NCBI GenBank assembly: GCA_022827345.1
Contig: JAJDTB010000027.1
Span: 1-64,000 of the forward strand
Reading direction: 5' to 3'
From: Gemmatimonadota bacterium
Lineage (GTDB): Bacteria; Gemmatimonadota; Gemmatimonadetes; Longimicrobiales; Gaopeijiaceae
DNA: 64,000 nucleotides
The stretch's first letter is position 1; the number at the start of each line of letters is the position of its first letter. The position numbers and the translations under genes were made by a program. This document shows, piece by piece, positions 10,549 through 19,080 of the stretch. The notes under the pieces were generated by a model. It saw nothing but the letters and a program-made list of their open reading frames with translations, did no database searches and was not told the origin of the DNA.

Positions 10549-10699
10549 GGGGGCGGCCCAAGCCACCAAGGTCCTTGATCAGCAGGCCCCTCAGGTCGAT
10601 TGCGAACTTCCTCCTGAGGTCGGTGCCAGTCCCGCCCACCCTTCCGAACTGCTGCGCCACCGCTCCGAACCTTTCACATTCCTGAAGGGAACGCCAGTT

Positions 10700-11149
10700 T
10701 CACAGGGTGTCCTGGTCAGCTCTTGGTGACAATGCACTAATTGCTTGTACCAGTGGGGTTTCGCGAAGCTCATTCAGGAGAGGGCTGACAGAAACGCCGC
10801 GAAGGCTGGCGGACCGATACACTTCGCCACCACCCGAGAACACAAGCTCCATCGGTAGTGCCCCGATATCCAGGAGCGGCCGTTCTAGCACCCCGGAAAC
10901 GGGCAGTGGCGCGAGCCGCTGAAGTTCCCATGGTTCGGGGTTTCTTGATAGCACCAGGGCAAACGACTTCGGGTTCTGATGTCTCCAGTCCAGCCAGACC
11001 GCCAACAGGTTAGTGCAACTGAAGCACTGTGCCGGATCCATGAGGAGCACGACAGCCGGATCAGCGTCGGCAACCAACTGACCCAGGGTACGGCCATCTC
11101 GCAGTTCCCATTCGGCGGGTGACAGCGCGGGAGCGGTACAGCCTGTCAA
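10700..11149 (-). CDS. Small thioredoxin-like lipoprotein with CxxC, odd start
   Basis: A 149-residue product that opens with a lipobox-like LTGC. It then shows a thioredoxin-like pattern: a strand AVVLLMDPAQ, directly followed by CFSC (C42/C45) and a helix NLLAVWLDW, then SFALVLSRNPEPW. The CxxC after a hydrophobic strand fits a redoxin/AhpC-TSA-like fold, but the family was not matched with certainty. TTG at 11149 is the only standard start. Upstream in frame the sequence reads RFALACGIVELF, a plausible lipoprotein signal with no start codon before a stop, so the N-terminus may be damaged or the base call wrong. It lies 61 bases after the propeller lipoprotein. Confidence 0.5.
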   Translation of the reverse strand: MTGCTAPALSPAEWELRDGRTLGQLVADADPAVVLLMDPAQCFSCTNLLAVWLDWRHQNPKSFALVLSRNPEPWELQRLAPLPVSGVLERPLLDIGALPMELVFSGGGEVYRSASLRGVSVSPLLNELRETPLVQAISALSPRADQDTL

Positions 11150-11210
11150 GAAGAGTTCAACAATCCCGCACGCAAGTGCAAACCTCTACCTCGGTTGCCG
11201 GTGCATCCAG

Positions 11211-12374
11211 CTACCCTACCGGCAACCAGTCGCACCCGGACGTGTCGATCCGGTACCGGCGGATCCAAGTCTTGATGCCATCCTCATTCTCGTTGAGCGC
11301 TCGATCTAGCAGATAGAGGGTGTCGCCCGCCACGGTGTGGACCACTCGCATCTCGTTTGAGAAATGCACTGGCCCGTCCACGCACGCGGTGGTCCGGTCG
11401 CTCGACAGGACACTCACGTAGATGCTGGACAGGAAATCCACCATCGGCGGCTTCCCTTTCACCGACATGTCGTGGTGGATCAGAGCGGTTGAACCGCCCG
11501 ACATCCGGTAGATGCCGTGAAGAACCGACAGCATCTCCATGCGTTCATTGAAGGTTATGGATTCATCACCTACGCGATCGATACGTTCCTGTGCATCATC
11601 GGGCACTCCTCGCCGCAGACTACGGGGGGGATGTAGGGTATCCAGCACTAGACCGTCTCGCAAGGCGAGATAGAGCTCGTTGGTGCCGCCCATCCCCAAC
11701 AGAATCGTATCCGCCCATGCAGCCGCGCTGCCCAGTCCAAAGATGCCCGTGAAGACCCCGGCGCCCGCAAGCGACTGGCGGTAGGGCCCAGGCAATTCCA
11801 CGAGATGGCTGGATCGGTCTGTGACCTGGTCCCATACCATCACGGATTTGGCATCTTCTATACGCAGGATAGGAACAATTGCCGTGCCATCCACGACTGC
11901 AGCTGCAATCCCCACAATGCCCTCATAGCGAGTTGAGCCGAGGTACTCGCCGCCTTGTCGAGAGAACTGGGTAAAGAGCCTGCGTCCAGTATCCACACCA
12001 ACGACTACGGAGTCGTTCAGGATAAACACCGGACCCAGTCGCGTGAATTCGCCGGGCCCGGGGCCTGGTCGGCCATACCTCTGGATCACCTGCCCCTGCG
12101 GATGAAAGCGAAAGATCTGCCCTTCGAAGAAATCTGCTACAAGGAACGATCCGTCGAGTGAGTCGAGCACCAGGGTATGTGGATTGCCCAGGTAGTAGTC
12201 GGTACGCTCGTCAAGCAGTATTGGCTCAAGAGCAACAATCTCTGGCCCAACGACGTTATCTGCTCTCGGATCGCTGGTCCAGCCGACATCGGACGACGGT
12301 GCATCGCCGACGCAGCCACTAACACCACCGAGGACCACGAGCCACCAGTAACAGCTCCTAACTATGGAGAGCAA
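11211..12374 (-). CDS. 6-bladed beta-propeller lipoprotein
   Basis: A propeller lipoprotein of about 387 residues. TTG at 12374 (after AAGGAC, spacing about 10) gives the compact signal LLSIVRSCYWWLVVLGGVSGC. A longer frame to GTG 12452 would overlap the preceding peptide gene and place the lipid Cys near residue 47. The body resembles the Bacteroidota 6-bladed-propeller (BF2992-like) family: NPHTLVLDSLDGSFLVADFFEGQIFRFHPQG, GRPGPGPGEFTRLGPVFIL, and a C-terminal YLLDRALNENEDGIKTWIRRYRI. It sits between a Cys-rich peptide gene and a CxxC lipoprotein gene, a layout that recalls NVEALA-peptide loci of Bacteroides. Function is unknown. Confidence 0.7.
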   Translation of the reverse strand: MLSIVRSCYWWLVVLGGVSGCVGDAPSSDVGWTSDPRADNVVGPEIVALEPILLDERTDYYLGNPHTLVLDSLDGSFLVADFFEGQIFRFHPQGQVIQRYGRPGPGPGEFTRLGPVFILNDSVVVGVDTGRRLFTQFSRQGGEYLGSTRYEGIVGIAAAVVDGTAIVPILRIEDAKSVMVWDQVTDRSSHLVELPGPYRQSLAGAGVFTGIFGLGSAAAWADTILLGMGGTNELYLALRDGLVLDTLHPPRSLRRGVPDDAQERIDRVGDESITFNERMEMLSVLHGIYRMSGGSTALIHHDMSVKGKPPMVDFLSSIYVSVLSSDRTTACVDGPVHFSNEMRVVHTVAGDTLYLLDRALNENEDGIKTWIRRYRIDTSGCDWLPVG

Positions 12375-12409
12375 GGCAGGACCGTCCTTGACACTGCTAG
12401 AGCCAGCGA

Positions 12410-12688
12410 CTATGCCTCGACTATTATCGGGTCTAGCTGGATACACCAACACCCAGATCCCGGATCATAGAAGGGGCATCTGTAGTCGCATCTGGAAACG
12501 AAATTGATGATGTAGAGCTGGTCCCCTTGTGCGCTCACCGACGTGGCCTGAGAGTTCGGTAGCACCGGACCACTAACAAGTGGTAGTGAGGCGACTACAG
12601 CAATCAGAGCCATCTTTTTGAGAATCCGAACGAGTCTCGTGAGTTGTTCCTCCCGGCATCGTTTGGGATGGAAAAAAAGGAGTGGCAT
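12410..12688 (-). CDS. Small exported Cys-rich peptide
   Basis: This 92-residue gene has a strong ribosome site (GGAGGG, 5 bases before ATG 12688). A charged 24-residue leader (KRCREEQLTRLVRILKK) precedes a hydrophobic stretch MALIAVVASLPLVSG and a likely cleavage region SVSAQ-GDQ. The mature part is about 40 residues with four clustered Cys (SRCDYRCPFYDPGSGCWC), which could form two disulfides or be matured further. No known family is recognised. Its layout (leader, short Cys-rich core, then propeller lipoprotein and CxxC lipoprotein downstream) resembles NVEALA-type natural-product-like precursors of Bacteroides. That parallel is inference. Confidence 0.6.
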   Translation of the reverse strand: MPLLFFHPKRCREEQLTRLVRILKKMALIAVVASLPLVSGPVLPNSQATSVSAQGDQLYIINFVSRCDYRCPFYDPGSGCWCIQLDPIIVEA

Positions 12689-12958
12689 ATTCGCCCTCCG
12701 AGCAGATTACCTCGAGAACCTCCGACGATAGTGTCGTAGTCTGTGGTGGTGAAGTATGCACCATCACTATAACTGTCATGAGTTATTGTGTCAACGGACG
12801 GGCTTCTCAGAACCGACGTCAGCAGGTTGATCTGCCGGATACACCGCTACCCACAGCGCTACGGTTTCCGCACCAGGACGCCGTCCGAAGTACCAATAGG
12901 ACTCTGCAGCCTGTTGCTCGAAATGGTCGACAAACTCGCCCCCAGCATCCCACCCACC
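12689..12958. other. Intergenic region upstream of the peptide cassette
   Basis: About 270 bases separate the end of the first FG-GAP/LVIVD gene from the peptide start. The minus-strand message leader contains the GGAGGG ribosome site and an AT-richer stretch near 12760-12790 (AGTTATAGTGATGG on the minus strand) where a promoter would be expected. No convincing -35/-10 pair and no other gene is seen. Confidence 0.4.
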
Positions 12959-15409
12959 TCAACTCACCGGCCGCACCCGCTTCTTCAGAATGAAGAGCCC
13001 CTCCTGCATGCTGGTCACGATCACCGTGCCGCTCTCGAAATAGGGGTAGTTGCTCCACGCGCCGCCGAACCCCGGGCCCTCCTTGTGCGGGGCCGTGTCG
13101 AAGTAGCCGACTTCGCGCGGGTTCTCGGGGTCGGAGACGTCGAGGATGTGCAGGCCGTAGAGGTAGTTGGCCTGGAACATCAGGTCGTCGCGGATGTAGA
13201 GGTTGTGCGCGCTGGCGGGCATCGAGCCCATGAACTCGCGGACCAGCACGGGGTCCTCGATGTCGCTGACGTCCCAGATCAGGGTGCGGGTGGTCTCCGC
13301 GTTGCCGGCGATCACGTCGGCCTCGTCGTTCTGGTAGAAGTAGCGATGATCGGCAGTGAGCCAGCCCTGGTGGATGTACGCGGGGTTGGGTGACGATGGA
13401 TTTGCCACGACGACCGGGTCGTCCTTGTCGGTGACGTCCTGGATCTGGAAGTTGCGGCCGTTGGAGTTGAAGCAGAGCTCGCGGCCCGTGTAGTTCTCGT
13501 CGGGGCCGCGGTAGATCACGCACTGGGTGTCGTGGGTGCCGCCGGTGGGGGCGCAGCCGACGAACTCGGGATTGGCGGGATCGTCGATGTTGATCATGTG
13601 GAGCCCGCCGCCGCAGGTGTCGCCGGCGCCGCCGCCCCCGATCGTGTAGGCGATCCCCGTCTCCTCGTTGATCGCGATGTTGTGAGAGCTGCCGATGCGG
13701 GTGTAGTGCACGTCCGGCTCGAAGAGCGCGGGCATCTCGCCTGGGGAGATGTCGCGCAGGCGTCTGAGGTCGAAGACCTGCATGCCGTGCTCGCCCGCCC
13801 CGTCGGCGACGATGAAGGCATGGTCCTTGTACGTCTTGATGTCGCGCCAGAGCTGGGACGGCGGAGTGCCCCACGGCTTGGGCAGGTCGCCGACCAGCAT
13901 GGGGTTGGTGGGATCGGTGATGTCGACGAAGGACGTGCCGTCGTTGCGGCCCACCAGCGCGTATTCGCGTCCCGTCATGGGGTCGGTCCAGCCCCAGTTG
14001 TCGTTGGCGCGGACGCCGCGGGCGCGGTCGCCGGCCCGAAGGAGCGAGGGCGGGATGTATGCCAGCAGCTCGACCTCGTCGCAGTCGAAGGGGCCGACCT
14101 TGCCTTCGACGCAACGGCGCTCCTCACCCACCAGGGCCCCGAGCATGTCGGGTGCGCTCACGAGCATCTCGCCGTCGCCCCAGCCGCCGCCGGTGTGCTC
14201 GAAGACGTGGACCGAGCCGGCCTGGTGGTGCATGCCGGGGGCACCGACAGTGACCAGGCCGTCGCTCGCGACGACCAGGCCGCCGAACCGGTCGCTCTCG
14301 ACCGTCTCCTCCTGGGGGAGCTGGATCCGGCGCGGCTCGTCCGGCAGCGATCCGTCGCCGCCGGCCTCGTACACGAAGACCGAGCCGAGTTCGTAGCCGC
14401 GCGTGGTGGGGGCACCGACCCACACGTCGTCGCCGGCGAAGGCCACGGCTTCGCCGAAGCGGTCGCCGCTCTCGCCGCCGGAAACAGCAAGCCGTCCGTC
14501 GCCGGGGACCCACCGGGCAAGGTCGGCATCCCATGAATGCGTGTAGACGGCGCCACGGCTGTCGTCCGCTCCCGGCGCCCCGATCAGGACCCTTTCCCCG
14601 GAAGCCGCGAGGGCCGACCCGAAGTTGGCGTTCGATTCGGCGGGCGATTCGAGGACGCCGCCCTCCTCCCAGCCCCCATCCACCATGCGGTAGTGATGTA
14701 CGCGGCCGGCGCGCTCGCCGTCGTCGCCAGCGGCATTCCACTGGGGAGCGCCGATCAGGGCACCGTTGGCGGTGAACAGGATCGCCGCGCCGAAGCGGTC
14801 TCCCTCCGCCCCGTCCGCGGGTTGGAGCTGGCCGCGTCGGGTCCACTGGCCGTCGGCGCCGCGCTGATAGGTGTAGACGGCGCCCTGCGGCACGGCCTCT
14901 TCCTCGCCGCCTCGCCCGCGGGGGGCGGGGGCGGCTCCGGGTGCGCCCACGAAGAGCCAGTCGTCGTGTGCGGCGATGGACAGGCCGAAGTCGTTACCGC
15001 AGTAGCCGTCGTAGCGGCAGGTCGGGGACGCGCCGGCGATATCGTCGCCCTCGATCGTGCCGGTGGCCTGCCATGTGCCGCCGCCCGTGCGCTCGAAGAT
15101 GTGGATCGGACCGCCGCGCTGGCCGACGAAGAGGGTGTTGCCCGTCCTGGCGAGCATGGTGCCGAATCCGTCGGCGCGCTCGGAGCCGGGAGCGCGCAGC
15201 ACGCTGGACTCCCGCCACTCGCCCCCGGCGTTGCGGTAGATGTACACCGATCCGGGGCGGAAGCTGGTCGTCGGCTCGGCGATGAGGAGTTCGCCGTCGT
15301 CGATGATCACCGAGTTGCCGAAGGCGCCGGACTGTGCGGTGAGCGGGGGTGCGGCCCAGGTCAGGGCGGCGAGAGAGGCGAGGAGGGCGATGGTCGGCTT
15401 GCGAATCAT
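12959..15409 (-). CDS. FG-GAP plus LVIVD repeat secreted protein (choice-of-anchor B type), copy 1
   Basis: An 816-residue secreted protein with a Sec signal (MIRKPTIALLASLAALTWAAPPLTAQ). Residues of about 27-430 form an integrin-like FG-GAP propeller, with repeats such as SERADGFGTMLARTGNTLFVG and ESGDRFGEAVAFAGDDVWVGAP. Residues of about 450-815 carry LVIVD-type repeats (EYALVGRNDGTSFVDITDPTNPMLVGDL, GLHILDVSDPENPREVGYFD), as in the choice-of-anchor B family. It is probably a surface or periplasmic propeller protein; no enzyme motif is seen. It is a close paralogue of the next gene upstream, keeping even the same start MIRKP and end RVRPVS, so the pair arose by tandem duplication. Confidence 0.82.
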   Translation of the reverse strand: MIRKPTIALLASLAALTWAAPPLTAQSGAFGNSVIIDDGELLIAEPTTSFRPGSVYIYRNAGGEWRESSVLRAPGSERADGFGTMLARTGNTLFVGQRGGPIHIFERTGGGTWQATGTIEGDDIAGASPTCRYDGYCGNDFGLSIAAHDDWLFVGAPGAAPAPRGRGGEEEAVPQGAVYTYQRGADGQWTRRGQLQPADGAEGDRFGAAILFTANGALIGAPQWNAAGDDGERAGRVHHYRMVDGGWEEGGVLESPAESNANFGSALAASGERVLIGAPGADDSRGAVYTHSWDADLARWVPGDGRLAVSGGESGDRFGEAVAFAGDDVWVGAPTTRGYELGSVFVYEAGGDGSLPDEPRRIQLPQEETVESDRFGGLVVASDGLVTVGAPGMHHQAGSVHVFEHTGGGWGDGEMLVSAPDMLGALVGEERRCVEGKVGPFDCDEVELLAYIPPSLLRAGDRARGVRANDNWGWTDPMTGREYALVGRNDGTSFVDITDPTNPMLVGDLPKPWGTPPSQLWRDIKTYKDHAFIVADGAGEHGMQVFDLRRLRDISPGEMPALFEPDVHYTRIGSSHNIAINEETGIAYTIGGGGAGDTCGGGLHMINIDDPANPEFVGCAPTGGTHDTQCVIYRGPDENYTGRELCFNSNGRNFQIQDVTDKDDPVVVANPSSPNPAYIHQGWLTADHRYFYQNDEADVIAGNAETTRTLIWDVSDIEDPVLVREFMGSMPASAHNLYIRDDLMFQANYLYGLHILDVSDPENPREVGYFDTAPHKEGPGFGGAWSNYPYFESGTVIVTSMQEGLFILKKRVRPVS

Positions 15410-15595: not shown

Positions 15596-18097
15596 TCAAC
15601 TCACCGGCCGGACGCGCCGCTTCAGCACGAACAGACCTTCCTGCAGGCTTGTGACGATCACGGTGCCGCTTTCGAAGAACGGGTAGGTGCTCCAGGCGCC
15701 GCTGAACCCCGGGCCGTCCTGATAGGGCGACGTGTCGAAGTAGCCGGCCTCGCGCGGGTTCACCGGGTCGGAGATATCGAGCACGTGCAGCCCGTAGCGG
15801 TAGTTGGCCTGATAGGCGTAGCCGTCCTTCAGGTAGAGGTTGTGGGCGCTGGCCGGCATGGACCCCATGAACTCGCGGATCAGGATGGGCTCTTCCACGT
15901 CGGTCAGATCCCAGATCAGGGTGCGCGTGGTCTCGACGCTGCCGCGGATCACGTCGCTCTCGTCGTCCTGGTAGAAGTAGCGGTGATCCGGGGTGAGCCA
16001 GCCCTGATGGATGTAGGCGTAGTTGGGCGATGAGGCGCGCGCGACGGCGACCGGGTTGTCCTTGTCGGTGACGTCCGAGATCTCGAAGAACGCGCCGTTC
16101 GAGTTGAGGCACAGTTCGCGGTCGTGGTAGCGCTGGTCGGGCCCCTGGTAGATGACGCACTGGGAGTCGTGAGTGCCGCGCTCGTGGGCGGAGCAGCCGA
16201 CGAACACCGGGTTCTTCGGGTCGCGGATGTCCATCATGTGGAGGCCGCCGCCGCAGGACTCGCCGCCGCCGCGGTTGCCGACGGCGTAGGCGTAGCCGCT
16301 CTCCTCGTTGATGACGATGTTGTGCGAGCTCGCGATGCCCATGTAATGGGTGTCGGGTTCGAAGAGGGCGGGCATCTCGTCCGGCTCCACGGCGCGCAGG
16401 CGGGTGAGGTCGAAGACCTGCATGCCGTGCTCGCCCGCGCCGTCCGCGACGATGTAGGCGTGGTCCCTGTACGTCTTGATGTCGCGCCACAGCTGCGAGG
16501 GCGGAGTGCCCCAGGGTTTCGGGAGGTCGCCGACCAGCACCGGGTTCGAAGGGTTGGTGATGTCGATGAAGGAGGTGCCGTCGTTGCGTCCAACCAGGGC
16601 ATATTCGCGTCCGGTGACGGGGTCGGTCCAGCCCCAGTTGTCGTTGGTGCGGACGCCGCGGGCGCGTACGCCGTCCCGCAGGATGGAGTTGGGGATGAAT
16701 GAGAGCAGCTCGACCTCGTCGCAGTCGAAGGGACCGACCGTGCCGTCGATGCAGCGGCGTTCCTCGCCGATGAGCGGGGCGATCGCGTCGGGGGCGCTGA
16801 CGAGGGTGCCCGCGTCGTGCCAGGCCGAGGCGGGGTCATCGGGAGTGGCGTCCGCGCCGCGCTCGTAGAGGTGGACCGAGCCGGACTGGTGGTGCATGCC
16901 GGGGGCGGCGACGGCGACGACCTCGTTGTTTGCAACGATCAGGCCGCCGAAGCGGTCCTGCTCGACCGTCTCTTCCTGGGCAAGCTGGATGCCGCGTGGT
17001 TCGGGCGGCAGGGAGCCGTCGTCCCGGGTGGTGTAGACGTATGCGGAACCGGTCTCGTAGCCGCGCGTGGTGGGGGCCCCGACCCAGATGTCACCACCGG
17101 CGAATGCCACCGCCGCGCCGAGGCGGTCGCCGCTCTCGCCGGTCGGGAGCGTGAGGGCGTCGGCTGCCGGCGTCCACCGGGCAATGTCGTCGTCCCAGGA
17201 ATGTGCGAAAACGGCGCCACGGCTTTCGTTGGCACCCGGTGCGCCGACCAGGACCCTTCCATCGGCGGCCGCGATGGCCGACCCGTAGTTGGCGTTGGCC
17301 TCGGGCGCCGCTTCGAGGGCGCCGACCTCTTCCCAACCCCCCTCCACCAGGCGGAAATTATAGACACGGCCTGCGTTTTCGAGGCCCGCGAGGTCGCTGG
17401 TGGGGGCGGTCCACCGGGGTGCGCCGATCAGTGCGCCCCGGGGTGTGAGGACGATGGCGCTGCCGAATCCGTCGCCCGGCATGCCGTCGGCGGGGTGGAG
17501 GGTGGCGCGCTGGATCCAGGCGCCGCCGTCGCGCTCGTATGCGTGGACCGCACCGGGGACCTCGGGTTGCTCGGGCTCATTGCGGCGCTGCCGCTGGGGG
17601 TCGGGTGCGGCGCCGGGTGCGCCGACGAGAAGCCAGTTGCCGGCGGCCGCCAGCGCCAAGCCGAAGTCGGTTCCGCAGTAGCCGTACTGGCCGCATCCGG
17701 GGTCGATCCCGCCGACCCCGTCTCCGTCTACCGTCCCCGTGGCGAGCCAGGTGCCGTCGGCGGACCTCTCGAATACGTGCAGCGGCCCGCTGCGCTGACC
17801 GACGAACAGGGTGTTGTCGGCCTTTGCCAGTACGGTTCCAAAGCCGTCGGCGCGCTCGGAGTCGGGAGCGCGCAGAACCGTGGATTGGCGCCACGCGCCG
17901 CCTGATTTCTCGTAGACGTAGACGGCACCGGAACGGAAGTTGGGGTTGGGCTCGGCGATGAAGATCCCGTCGCTGTCGATGACGACCGAGTTGCCGAAGG
18001 ACGGGGACTGGGCGGCGAGGGGTGGTGCGGTGAGGGTCGTCGCGGCGGCGCAGAGCGCGGCCAGCGTAACCAGCGCGATGGGCGGCTTGCGGATCAT
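15596..18097 (-). CDS. FG-GAP plus LVIVD repeat secreted protein (choice-of-anchor B type), copy 2
   Basis: This 833-residue paralogue of the 12959-15409 product has the same architecture: a Sec signal (MIRKPPIALVTLAALCAAATTLTAPPLAAQ), an N-terminal FG-GAP propeller (RADGFGTVLAKADNTLFVGQ, ESGDRLGAAVAFAGGDIWVGAP) and a C-terminal LVIVD propeller (EYALVGRNDGTSFIDITNPSNPVLVGDL, GLHVLDISDPVNPREAGYFD). ATG at 18097 was taken because it begins the signal peptide shared with copy 1; the frame continues upstream only as an antisense artefact over the esterase. The gene follows the esterase by 32 bases, so both are likely co-transcribed. The divergence is moderate and spread evenly, which suggests an old duplication under similar constraint. 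Confidence 0.85.
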   Translation of the reverse strand: MIRKPPIALVTLAALCAAATTLTAPPLAAQSPSFGNSVVIDSDGIFIAEPNPNFRSGAVYVYEKSGGAWRQSTVLRAPDSERADGFGTVLAKADNTLFVGQRSGPLHVFERSADGTWLATGTVDGDGVGGIDPGCGQYGYCGTDFGLALAAAGNWLLVGAPGAAPDPQRQRRNEPEQPEVPGAVHAYERDGGAWIQRATLHPADGMPGDGFGSAIVLTPRGALIGAPRWTAPTSDLAGLENAGRVYNFRLVEGGWEEVGALEAAPEANANYGSAIAAADGRVLVGAPGANESRGAVFAHSWDDDIARWTPAADALTLPTGESGDRLGAAVAFAGGDIWVGAPTTRGYETGSAYVYTTRDDGSLPPEPRGIQLAQEETVEQDRFGGLIVANNEVVAVAAPGMHHQSGSVHLYERGADATPDDPASAWHDAGTLVSAPDAIAPLIGEERRCIDGTVGPFDCDEVELLSFIPNSILRDGVRARGVRTNDNWGWTDPVTGREYALVGRNDGTSFIDITNPSNPVLVGDLPKPWGTPPSQLWRDIKTYRDHAYIVADGAGEHGMQVFDLTRLRAVEPDEMPALFEPDTHYMGIASSHNIVINEESGYAYAVGNRGGGESCGGGLHMMDIRDPKNPVFVGCSAHERGTHDSQCVIYQGPDQRYHDRELCLNSNGAFFEISDVTDKDNPVAVARASSPNYAYIHQGWLTPDHRYFYQDDESDVIRGSVETTRTLIWDLTDVEEPILIREFMGSMPASAHNLYLKDGYAYQANYRYGLHVLDISDPVNPREAGYFDTSPYQDGPGFSGAWSTYPFFESGTVIVTSLQEGLFVLKRRVRPVS

Positions 18098-18129
18098 CGG
18101 TAAGCTCCGGTCTGGCAGGGGCCTGGCAT

Positions 18130-19080
18130 TCAGCGGGCGAGGATTTCGGCGGCGCGCGGGGCCATGAGCGCATTGCTGTGGCCGGCGCCGGGGACGGTGT
18201 CGAGGGCCCAGCCGAACGGAACCCCGAGGGATTCGGCGGCCGACCGGGCGGCGGCATGGAAGGTGTGGCCGCGGGTGAAGCGGTGCGGTCCCTGAAGCAT
18301 GGCCTCGGGCGTGCGGCGCAGGTTGCTCGAGGTGGTGATGGTGTCGGCATCGCCGAGCAGGACGGTGACGGGGAGCTGCAGGAGGCCCGCGAGGCCGGCG
18401 ACTTCGAATCCCGAGCCGCCCAGGCCGTAGGGCCACGCGGTCCCGTCGTCGGGCATGGTGTACCAGCCGGCGTTGGCGGCGACGGCCCGTTCGACGGGCG
18501 CGTCGGGGCGGGTCATCAGCAGCCGGTGTACGAACTGGCTGCCTGCGGAGTGGCCGAAGATGCGGAAGGTGGTGCGGGTGCTGCCGGTGGCGGTGCGGAC
18601 GGCGTCGAAGAGGTGTTCGATGGCGGTGAAGGTCCAGGCGGACTCGGGGTTGCGGGCGCCGCCCGAGGCCTCCGGCGAGTCCGCGTCGGGGAAGACGTTG
18701 CCGAGGTTGTACCACTGGTTGCCGGGGTAGCTGTCGGTGTCGAAGACGGGGACGAGGAGGAGGAAGCCGTGGGCGGCGGCGTGGGGCTCCCAGTCGTTGA
18801 AGTACCGCTCGCCGGCCCTCGAGTTGCCGTGCATGACAAAGACGATGGGCGTCTCGGGGCCGTGGCCCTCGGGCATGTGGTAGCGGACGGTGATCGGGCG
18901 ATCGGCGTTGCCGCGGGCGTCGCGGAAGGTGAACTGGCCGGAGCCGGGGTGGAGTTCGATCGTGACAGGCGCTTGTGCGGCTGCCGGATCCTGGTCGCCA
19001 CCATCACTCTCACCGCACCCGCCGCAGGCCACGGCCAGGATCGCCAACGGCAGCAGTGCCAGGCTACGCCGCTCTCTCAT
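18130..19080 (-). CDS. Alpha/beta-hydrolase (esterase/depolymerase-like) lipoprotein
   Basis: A 316-residue alpha/beta hydrolase behind a lipoprotein signal (LLPLAILAVACGGC). The oxyanion region is IVFVMHGNSRAG, the nucleophile elbow is FGHSAGSQF, the acid is likely in VLLGDADTI, and the His is in VPGAGHSN near the end. The fold resembles PHB-depolymerase/feruloyl-esterase-like (LpqC) enzymes that cleave esters at the cell surface. ATG at 19080 is preceded by GAGGAGAAGG. It lies 76 bases after the TolB/amidohydrolase gene and 32 bases before the copy 2 FG-GAP gene, forming a probable operon. The substrate is unknown. Confidence 0.82.
   Translation of the reverse strand: MRERRSLALLPLAILAVACGGCGESDGGDQDPAAAQAPVTIELHPGSGQFTFRDARGNADRPITVRYHMPEGHGPETPIVFVMHGNSRAGERYFNDWEPHAAAHGFLLLVPVFDTDSYPGNQWYNLGNVFPDADSPEASGGARNPESAWTFTAIEHLFDAVRTATGSTRTTFRIFGHSAGSQFVHRLLMTRPDAPVERAVAANAGWYTMPDDGTAWPYGLGGSGFEVAGLAGLLQLPVTVLLGDADTITTSSNLRRTPEAMLQGPHRFTRGHTFHAAARSAAESLGVPFGWALDTVPGAGHSNALMAPRAAEILAR

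What the first reader, a model, noticed from the sequence alone, without database searches (positions are those of the whole stretch)
10700..12688. Peptide / propeller-lipoprotein / CxxC-lipoprotein cassette
Three minus-strand genes in a row encode a 92-residue exported peptide with four clustered Cys, a 6-bladed-propeller lipoprotein and a small lipoprotein with CFSC right after a hydrophobic strand. This layout matches, part for part, the NVEALA-type loci of Bacteroides (peptide, BF2992-like propeller, redoxin), but the peptide shares no NVEALA sequence. If real, it is a disulfide-bearing secreted peptide with its own redox and propeller partners in a high-GC phylum.
Basis: partly seen in the sequence, partly recalled or inferred. 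Interest (0 to 1): 0.62.

Follow-up and report, generated by a model that had tools for sequence, protein, structure and literature searches.

The report
Mobile secreted cysteine-peptide gene cassette
A small block of genes that moves between sponge-associated Gemmatimonadota bacteria encodes a fast-changing exported peptide with four fixed cysteines, next to a propeller-shaped lipoprotein and a thioredoxin-like lipoprotein; it is laid out like the still unexplained NVEALA peptide loci of gut Bacteroides, with an unrelated peptide sequence.

Summary
The cassette is real and recurs. In 39 Gemmatimonadota loci (partly redundant; about 5 served to build the profile) found through the small lipoprotein alone, 38 have a same-strand 6-bladed propeller nearby. 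An exported peptide with at least three cysteines lies on the same strand in 31, against 1 on the opposite strand. In the close group the peptide keeps C-x3-C-x(4-9)-C-x(0-1)-C, usually followed by (D/P)PII(V/L), while most other residues vary. The small lipoprotein is predicted to have a thioredoxin fold. Real NVEALA loci fetched from Bacteroidales show the same three parts, in two regions in the window's order. The peptide is not NVEALA, and common descent of the partners is not shown. The cassette moves: several congeners lack it at this site, and a 3.1-kb copy 98.8% identical sits in a genome of another family. About 20 related propellers stand alone. Two corrections: the window's small lipoprotein frame has a TAG inside its signal peptide, and only the second Cys of CxxC is invariant. 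I favour a secreted disulfide peptide folded and held by two dedicated lipoproteins, perhaps for antagonism. Disulfides, binding and function are untested.

The parts
12410..12688 (-). Exported Cys peptide gene (92 aa; ATG 12688 behind GGAGGG; hydrophobic signal segment, then the mature core QLYIINFVSRCDYRCPFYDPGSGCWCIQLDPIIVEA)
   Evidence: homologous or analogous peptides in 31 of 39 lipoprotein-anchored loci; profile of the core in 395 genomes gives 23 matches at E <= 2.1e-10, then a gap to 2.7e-4
11211..12374 (-). 6-bladed NHL-type propeller lipoprotein; likely start TTG 12374, lipobox VSGC; open frame reaches GTG 12452
   Evidence: Pfam DUF5128; model pLDDT 91.1, Brat NHL Z 23.9, Bacteroides DUF4221 3s9j Z 22.8 over 315 residues
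10700..11206 (-).
   Evidence: model pLDDT 82.5 with all top PDB matches thioredoxin-like
11186..11188 (-). In-frame TAG inside the lipoprotein's signal peptide
   Evidence: relatives L030, L033 and L074 have no stop there
10557..12920 (.). Cassette insertion between an M14-peptidase-like gene (+, ends 10548) and a repeat-protein gene (-, from 12959); 58% GC in the three genes against 67-69% in the flanks
   Evidence: in G230 the same two flanks lie 86 bp apart; seven further congeneric sites have both flanks and no match to the cassette between them; GC

Best explanation
This is a mobile three-gene cassette for a secreted, disulfide-bonded peptide. The precursor leaves by Sec and is cut by signal peptidase, giving a mature peptide of about 35-40 residues with four fixed Cys and a hydrophobic tail (shown: sequence anatomy and conservation; inferred: cleavage and disulfides). 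The thioredoxin-fold lipoprotein oxidises, isomerises or briefly holds the peptide's Cys through its invariant second Cys (inferred from the predicted fold and the co-occurrence). The propeller lipoprotein binds the mature peptide as holder, receptor or protector (inferred from co-inheritance). The purpose I think most likely is antagonism between close relatives, with the propeller as protector. That rests on the variable peptide, the mobility and the many lone propellers, and on its own I put it at about 0.3.
For: Co-occurrence: 38 of 39 lipoprotein loci have a same-strand propeller and 31 of 39 a same-strand exported Cys peptide, against 1 of 39 on the opposite strand. In a pattern search of all loci, 36 of 39 candidate peptides lie within 700 nt upstream of a propeller, a zone that is about 5% of the strand length. 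Three Cys are invariant and the fourth nearly so, in a core with 39% mean column identity. Peptide, propeller and lipoprotein distances correlate (Spearman 0.45-0.75, Mantel p <= 0.001). The peptide is under protein-level constraint in the close clade and much less in the second clade, with pairwise dN/dS up to about 1 or slightly above. Thioredoxin fold and NHL propeller fold. Mobility: absent at the same site in several congeners, low GC, and a 98.8% identical 3.1-kb block in genomes of different families. About 20 propellers without peptide or lipoprotein, several 83-94% identical in DNA to cassette propellers.
Against: No direct evidence for disulfides, binding or activity. The first Cys of CxxC is replaced in eight loci, so a classical two-Cys oxidoreductase cannot be general. 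The window's lipoprotein gene carries a nonsense codon, so this copy may be decaying. No killing domain, dedicated transporter or regulator is in the cassette. Lone propellers could be paralogues with other roles: the genome has 39 propeller matches. Several loci have no recognisable peptide.
Confidence: 0.55

Rival explanations
1. Peptide pheromone or host-directed signal: the mature peptide is released and the propeller lipoprotein is its receptor or carrier; there is no killing.
For: Small secreted peptide with a dedicated surface lipoprotein; many relatives are in sponge-associated genomes, judging by record titles; peptide types and propellers co-diverge.
Against: No sensor kinase, sigma factor or other cytoplasmic output lies in the cassette; a cassette absent at this site from congeners is unusual for a core signalling system.
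Confidence: 0.22
2. Metal or haem handling: the C-x3-C...C-x-C peptide binds a metal, and the thioredoxin-fold lipoprotein acts like an Sco or TlpA metallochaperone.
For: Four fixed Cys; Sco, ResA and CcmG proteins are among the fold matches.
Against: The rest of the peptide is hypervariable and Cys patterns change in distant loci, unlike a metal site; one lipoprotein Cys is often missing; no metal transporter in the cassette.
Confidence: 0.1
3. Thioether-type RiPP (ranthipeptide-like) precursor whose Cys are cross-linked by an enzyme.
For: Ranthipeptide clusters are reported in another Gemmatimonadota order (PMC11651109); small Cys-rich precursor.
Against: A Sec-type signal peptide instead of a cytoplasmic leader; no radical SAM or other modifying gene in the cassette; the neighbouring M14 and repeat-protein genes stay when the cassette is absent.
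Confidence: 0.05
4. The small frames are chance or decayed sequence beside a common propeller gene.
For: The window's lipoprotein has a TAG; L032 has lost the peptide's signal segment next to a tRNA; the phylum is rich in propellers.
Against: 31 of 39 against 1 of 39; protein-level constraint; clean profile gap.
Confidence: 0.03

Closest known systems
NVEALA peptide loci of Bacteroidales (PF14055 peptide, PF15869 or related propeller lipoprotein, CxxC lipoprotein)
   Same: Same three parts; same gene order as the window in L225 and L226; the redox motif sits alike, VDSTGCTSCKLQLPKW against MDPAQCFSCTNLLAVW; some NVEALA peptides also end in C-x-C
   Different: No NVEALA leader motif; different conserved tail (PII(V/L)); propeller hits DUF5128 rather than TolB_like; two of the four NVEALA regions also hold signal peptidase I and some lipoproteins a DUF1573 domain; profile comparison does not prove common descent
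Thioredoxin-like extracytoplasmic lipoproteins and relatives (ResA, CcmG, Etrx, FetE)
   Same: Predicted fold and place of CxxC at the start of the first long helix
   Different: No Pfam thioredoxin match above cut-off; first Cys replaceable; short domain
DUF6520 small proteins (PF20130)
   Same: One distant peptide (L034) matches weakly, E 0.0028, 18.4 bits against a cut-off of 25.4
   Different: Below cut-off; the other nine peptides tested do not match
Bacteriocin-type modules with separate immunity genes
   Same: Small variable secreted peptide, mobile cassette, lone partner genes
   Different: No activity shown; no dedicated transporter; the partners are two lipoproteins

Membership tests
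NVEALA-type locus (Bacteroidota) | Peptide matches PF14055 (NVEALA) | tested here: not met
   No Pfam match for the window peptide or NVEALA match in ten relatives; no match in the whole genome
NVEALA-type locus (Bacteroidota) | Peptide gene just upstream of a 6-bladed propeller lipoprotein, same strand | tested here: met
   Window and relatives; the 11 NVEALA peptides compared in L223-L226
NVEALA-type locus (Bacteroidota) | CxxC thioredoxin-like lipoprotein in the same operon | tested here: met
   Present in the window as a frame with an interrupted signal peptide; intact in relatives; in NVEALA regions L223, L225 and L226
NVEALA-type locus (Bacteroidota) | Partners homologous to those of Bacteroides | tested here: inconclusive
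   hhalign probability 10-15% for the lipoprotein, aligned in register at CxxC; 43% and out of register for the propeller; fold match to Bacteroides 3s9j and 4raa
NVEALA-type locus (Bacteroidota) | Signal peptidase I gene in the locus (seen in two of the four NVEALA regions) | tested here: not met
   No such frame between the flanking genes of the window cassette; present in L223 (PF10502) and, by its sequence, in L226
Pfam DUF5128 6-bladed propeller | Score above Pfam's gathering cut-off | tested here: met
   25.5 against 22.9 bits
Thioredoxin superfamily | Thioredoxin fold with CxxC at the first helix | tested here: met
   Model pLDDT 82.5; top 50 Foldseek matches and nearly all listed VIA matches are thioredoxin-fold, best Z 8.7 at 4.5 A over 125 residues; moderate support
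Thioredoxin superfamily | Both Cys of CxxC conserved, as in classical oxidoreductases | tested here: not met
   First Cys replaced in L034, L036, L077, L081, L086, L091, L092 and L140; second invariant. Activity not testable here
RiPP (ranthipeptide-like) | Radical SAM or other modifying enzyme beside the precursor | tested here: not met
   Only the three genes lie between flanks that persist in cassette-free congeners
Bacteriocin and immunity module | Killing of relatives and protection by a partner gene | not testable with these tools
   Only circumstantial: mobility, lone propellers, variable peptide

The most novel reading that the evidence does not exclude
Two phyla, Gemmatimonadota and Bacteroidota, share one mode of making surface or secreted disulfide peptides: a hypervariable Cys peptide, its own thioredoxin-fold lipoprotein and its own propeller lipoprotein, carried as a mobile cassette and used in competition between neighbouring bacteria, with lone propellers as protection.
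Probability: 0.25. Interest if true: 0.85.

Novelty: new variant of a known kind. Interest (0 to 1): 0.62.

Why it matters
The NVEALA peptides of gut Bacteroides have a family name but no paper on them in the library searched. Finding the same three parts, with an unrelated peptide, in Gemmatimonadota suggests that the unit of function is the trio and not the NVEALA motif. It gives a clear comparative handle (four fixed Cys, a conserved PII(V/L) tail, a dedicated thioredoxin-fold lipoprotein, a co-evolving propeller) and makes the question of what these peptides do testable in genetically tractable Bacteroides.

Tried and rejected
BLAST of the peptide alone finds only three credible relatives beyond the window in 96 genomes, of which the best (1.0e-4) has lost its signal segment, so the lipoprotein was used as bait instead. 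Pfam, NCBIfam, PHROGs and PADLOC give nothing for the peptide or small lipoprotein, and PHROGs and PADLOC nothing for the propeller; a weak Kringle hit and a weak DUF6520 hit on relatives are below cut-off. PDB by sequence gives nothing credible for the lipoprotein profile. A first scan for organism names with the lipoprotein alignment had no usable conserved stretch; the propeller alignment worked. No target-site duplication or terminal inverted repeat was found at the insertion, so no transposase or integrase route is claimed. Literature searches for NVEALA, DUF6520 and DUF4221 gave no paper. Rejected: RiPP reading (no modifying enzyme) and chance.

Full report
What is there. On the minus strand the window holds a peptide frame (12410-12688), a propeller frame (open from 12452, most likely started at TTG 12374) and a small frame with CFSC (10700-11149). 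The peptide has a hydrophobic export segment and the core RCDYRCPFYDPGSGCWCIQLDPIIVEA. The propeller passes Pfam DUF5128. The small frame has no family match. Read upstream, its signal peptide MHRQPR*RFALACGIVELFLTGC begins at ATG 11206 and is broken by a TAG. A related locus, L036, has a TAG at a similar place, and L034 has lost its signal peptide; L030, L033 and L074 are intact. The window copy of this gene may therefore be decaying, or the base may be an assembly error.

It recurs. A search with the small lipoprotein alone found relatives in 7 of 96 genomes of the family, the window's own included, and a profile of six found 32 of 395 genomes of the phylum, over several families and orders. 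Nothing about the peptide entered these searches. Of 39 loci with a lipoprotein match, 38 have a same-strand propeller within 2.5 kb and 31 an exported peptide with at least three Cys on the same strand, against 1 on the opposite strand. Some of the 31 are near-identical copies, about five loci were used to build the profile, one call (L082) picks the wrong frame although a Cys-rich frame is visible there, and in L087 and L095 the peptide was missed by the criterion but is visible. A separate count over all loci gives 36 of 39 pattern matches within 700 nt upstream of a propeller, a zone of about 5% of the strand length. A profile of the core, run over 395 genomes, gives 23 matches at E <= 2.1e-10 and then nothing until 2.7e-4; most of these are the training loci or near copies.

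Peptide anatomy. In the close group the core is C-x3-C-x(4-9)-C-x(0-1)-C, usually followed by (D/P)PII(V/L); three Cys are invariant and the fourth nearly so, with 39% mean column identity overall. In distant loci the Cys pattern changes but the peptide stays small, exported and Cys-rich. One locus has two different peptides in tandem (L083). Pairwise dN/dS is about 0.2-0.4 in the closest clade and higher, up to about 1 or slightly above, in the second, so the frame is coding and part of it is free to vary.

The partners. AlphaFold with an alignment of 14 gives the lipoprotein a model of pLDDT 82.5. The fifty best Foldseek matches are thioredoxin-fold proteins, and a second aligner agrees, best Z 8.7. 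The second Cys of CxxC is invariant, the first is replaced in eight loci, which speaks for a single essential Cys rather than a classical CxxC enzyme. The propeller model has pLDDT 91.1. The best matches are NHL domains (Brat, Z 23.9), and among the matches covering most of the chain are the Bacteroides proteins 3s9j (Z 22.8 over 315 residues) and 4raa. Peptide, propeller and lipoprotein distances correlate over 20 cassettes.

Mobility. In eight of the ten congeneric sites fetched, both flanking genes were found again and no match to the cassette lay between them, though the distance between the flanks varies; in G230, 97% identical at the flanking protein, 86 bp replace 2.36 kb, and in three others the flanks are likewise within about 0.1 kb. 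The remaining two showed only the left flank. No target duplication or terminal repeat was found. The cassette has 58% GC against 67-69% around it. A 3.1-kb block is 98.8% identical between a genome of the window's family and Candidatus Palauibacter denitrificans, with differing sequence beyond one end, although misbinning of metagenome contigs cannot be excluded. In a closed genome (OX638356) a cassette abuts a tRNA-Ile and its peptide has lost the signal segment. About 20 related propellers stand alone, several 83-94% identical in DNA to cassette propellers.

Comparison with NVEALA loci. Real ones were fetched from two Bacteroidales genomes. The 11 NVEALA peptides compared lie ahead of a propeller lipoprotein on the same strand, and regions L225 and L226 have peptide, propeller, CxxC lipoprotein in the window's order. 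The redox motifs sit alike (VDSTGCTSCKLQLPKW against MDPAQCFSCTNLLAVW). The window peptide and its relatives are not NVEALA. Profile comparison leaves the ancestry of the partners open. So it works like an NVEALA locus in layout, but membership is not claimed.

Where it lives. Named relatives are mostly Gemmatimonadota MAGs, several from sponge projects judging by the record titles, including Ca. Palauibacter and a Longimicrobiales genome; some carry doubtful phylum labels (Gammaproteobacteria, Deltaproteobacteria). The sponge link is my reading of sample codes, not a tested fact.

How it most likely works. Shown: co-inheritance, export signal, fixed Cys, predicted folds, mobility. Inferred: cleavage, disulfides formed with help of the thioredoxin-fold lipoprotein, binding by the propeller. 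Purpose is the least certain step; antagonism between relatives with the propeller as protector fits mobility, lone propellers and the variable peptide, and I give it about 0.3, signalling about 0.2.

Noticed in passing
window 11186-11188: In-frame TAG in the signal peptide of the small lipoprotein; L036 has a TAG at a similar place (MLRRRMRMGVYGSLAILA*GCAEP).
   Followed up: partly
L032 8567-8823 (OX638356): Cassette peptide core directly abuts a tRNA-Ile(gat) gene and lacks its signal segment, as after integration at a tRNA end.
   Followed up: partly
L101, L103, L105, L108, L111, L112, L114, L115, L118-L121, L124, L128, L129, L131-L134, L136: Propellers closely related to cassette propellers without a recognisable peptide or lipoprotein in the fetched stretch.
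   Followed up: partly
L083 3112-3621: Two different exported Cys peptides in tandem ahead of one propeller.
   Followed up: no
L034, L036, L077, L081, L086, L091, L092, L140: First Cys of the lipoprotein's CxxC replaced by A, W, T, V, L or Y while the second stays invariant.
   Followed up: partly
L223 11835-12725 and L226 1-680: Signal peptidase I genes inside NVEALA loci of Bacteroidales (Pfam-confirmed for L223 only).
   Followed up: partly
L225 5496-6365, L226 3304-4167: NVEALA-locus redox lipoproteins carry a C-terminal DUF1573 domain.
   Followed up: no
window 12959-15409 and 15596-18715: Two adjacent, similar long repeat-protein genes with the same ending (EGLFxLKxRVRPVS); the frame listed for the second reaches further upstream.
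   Followed up: no
L030/L031 and L067: 3.1-kb block 98.8% identical between genomes placed in different families.
   Followed up: partly
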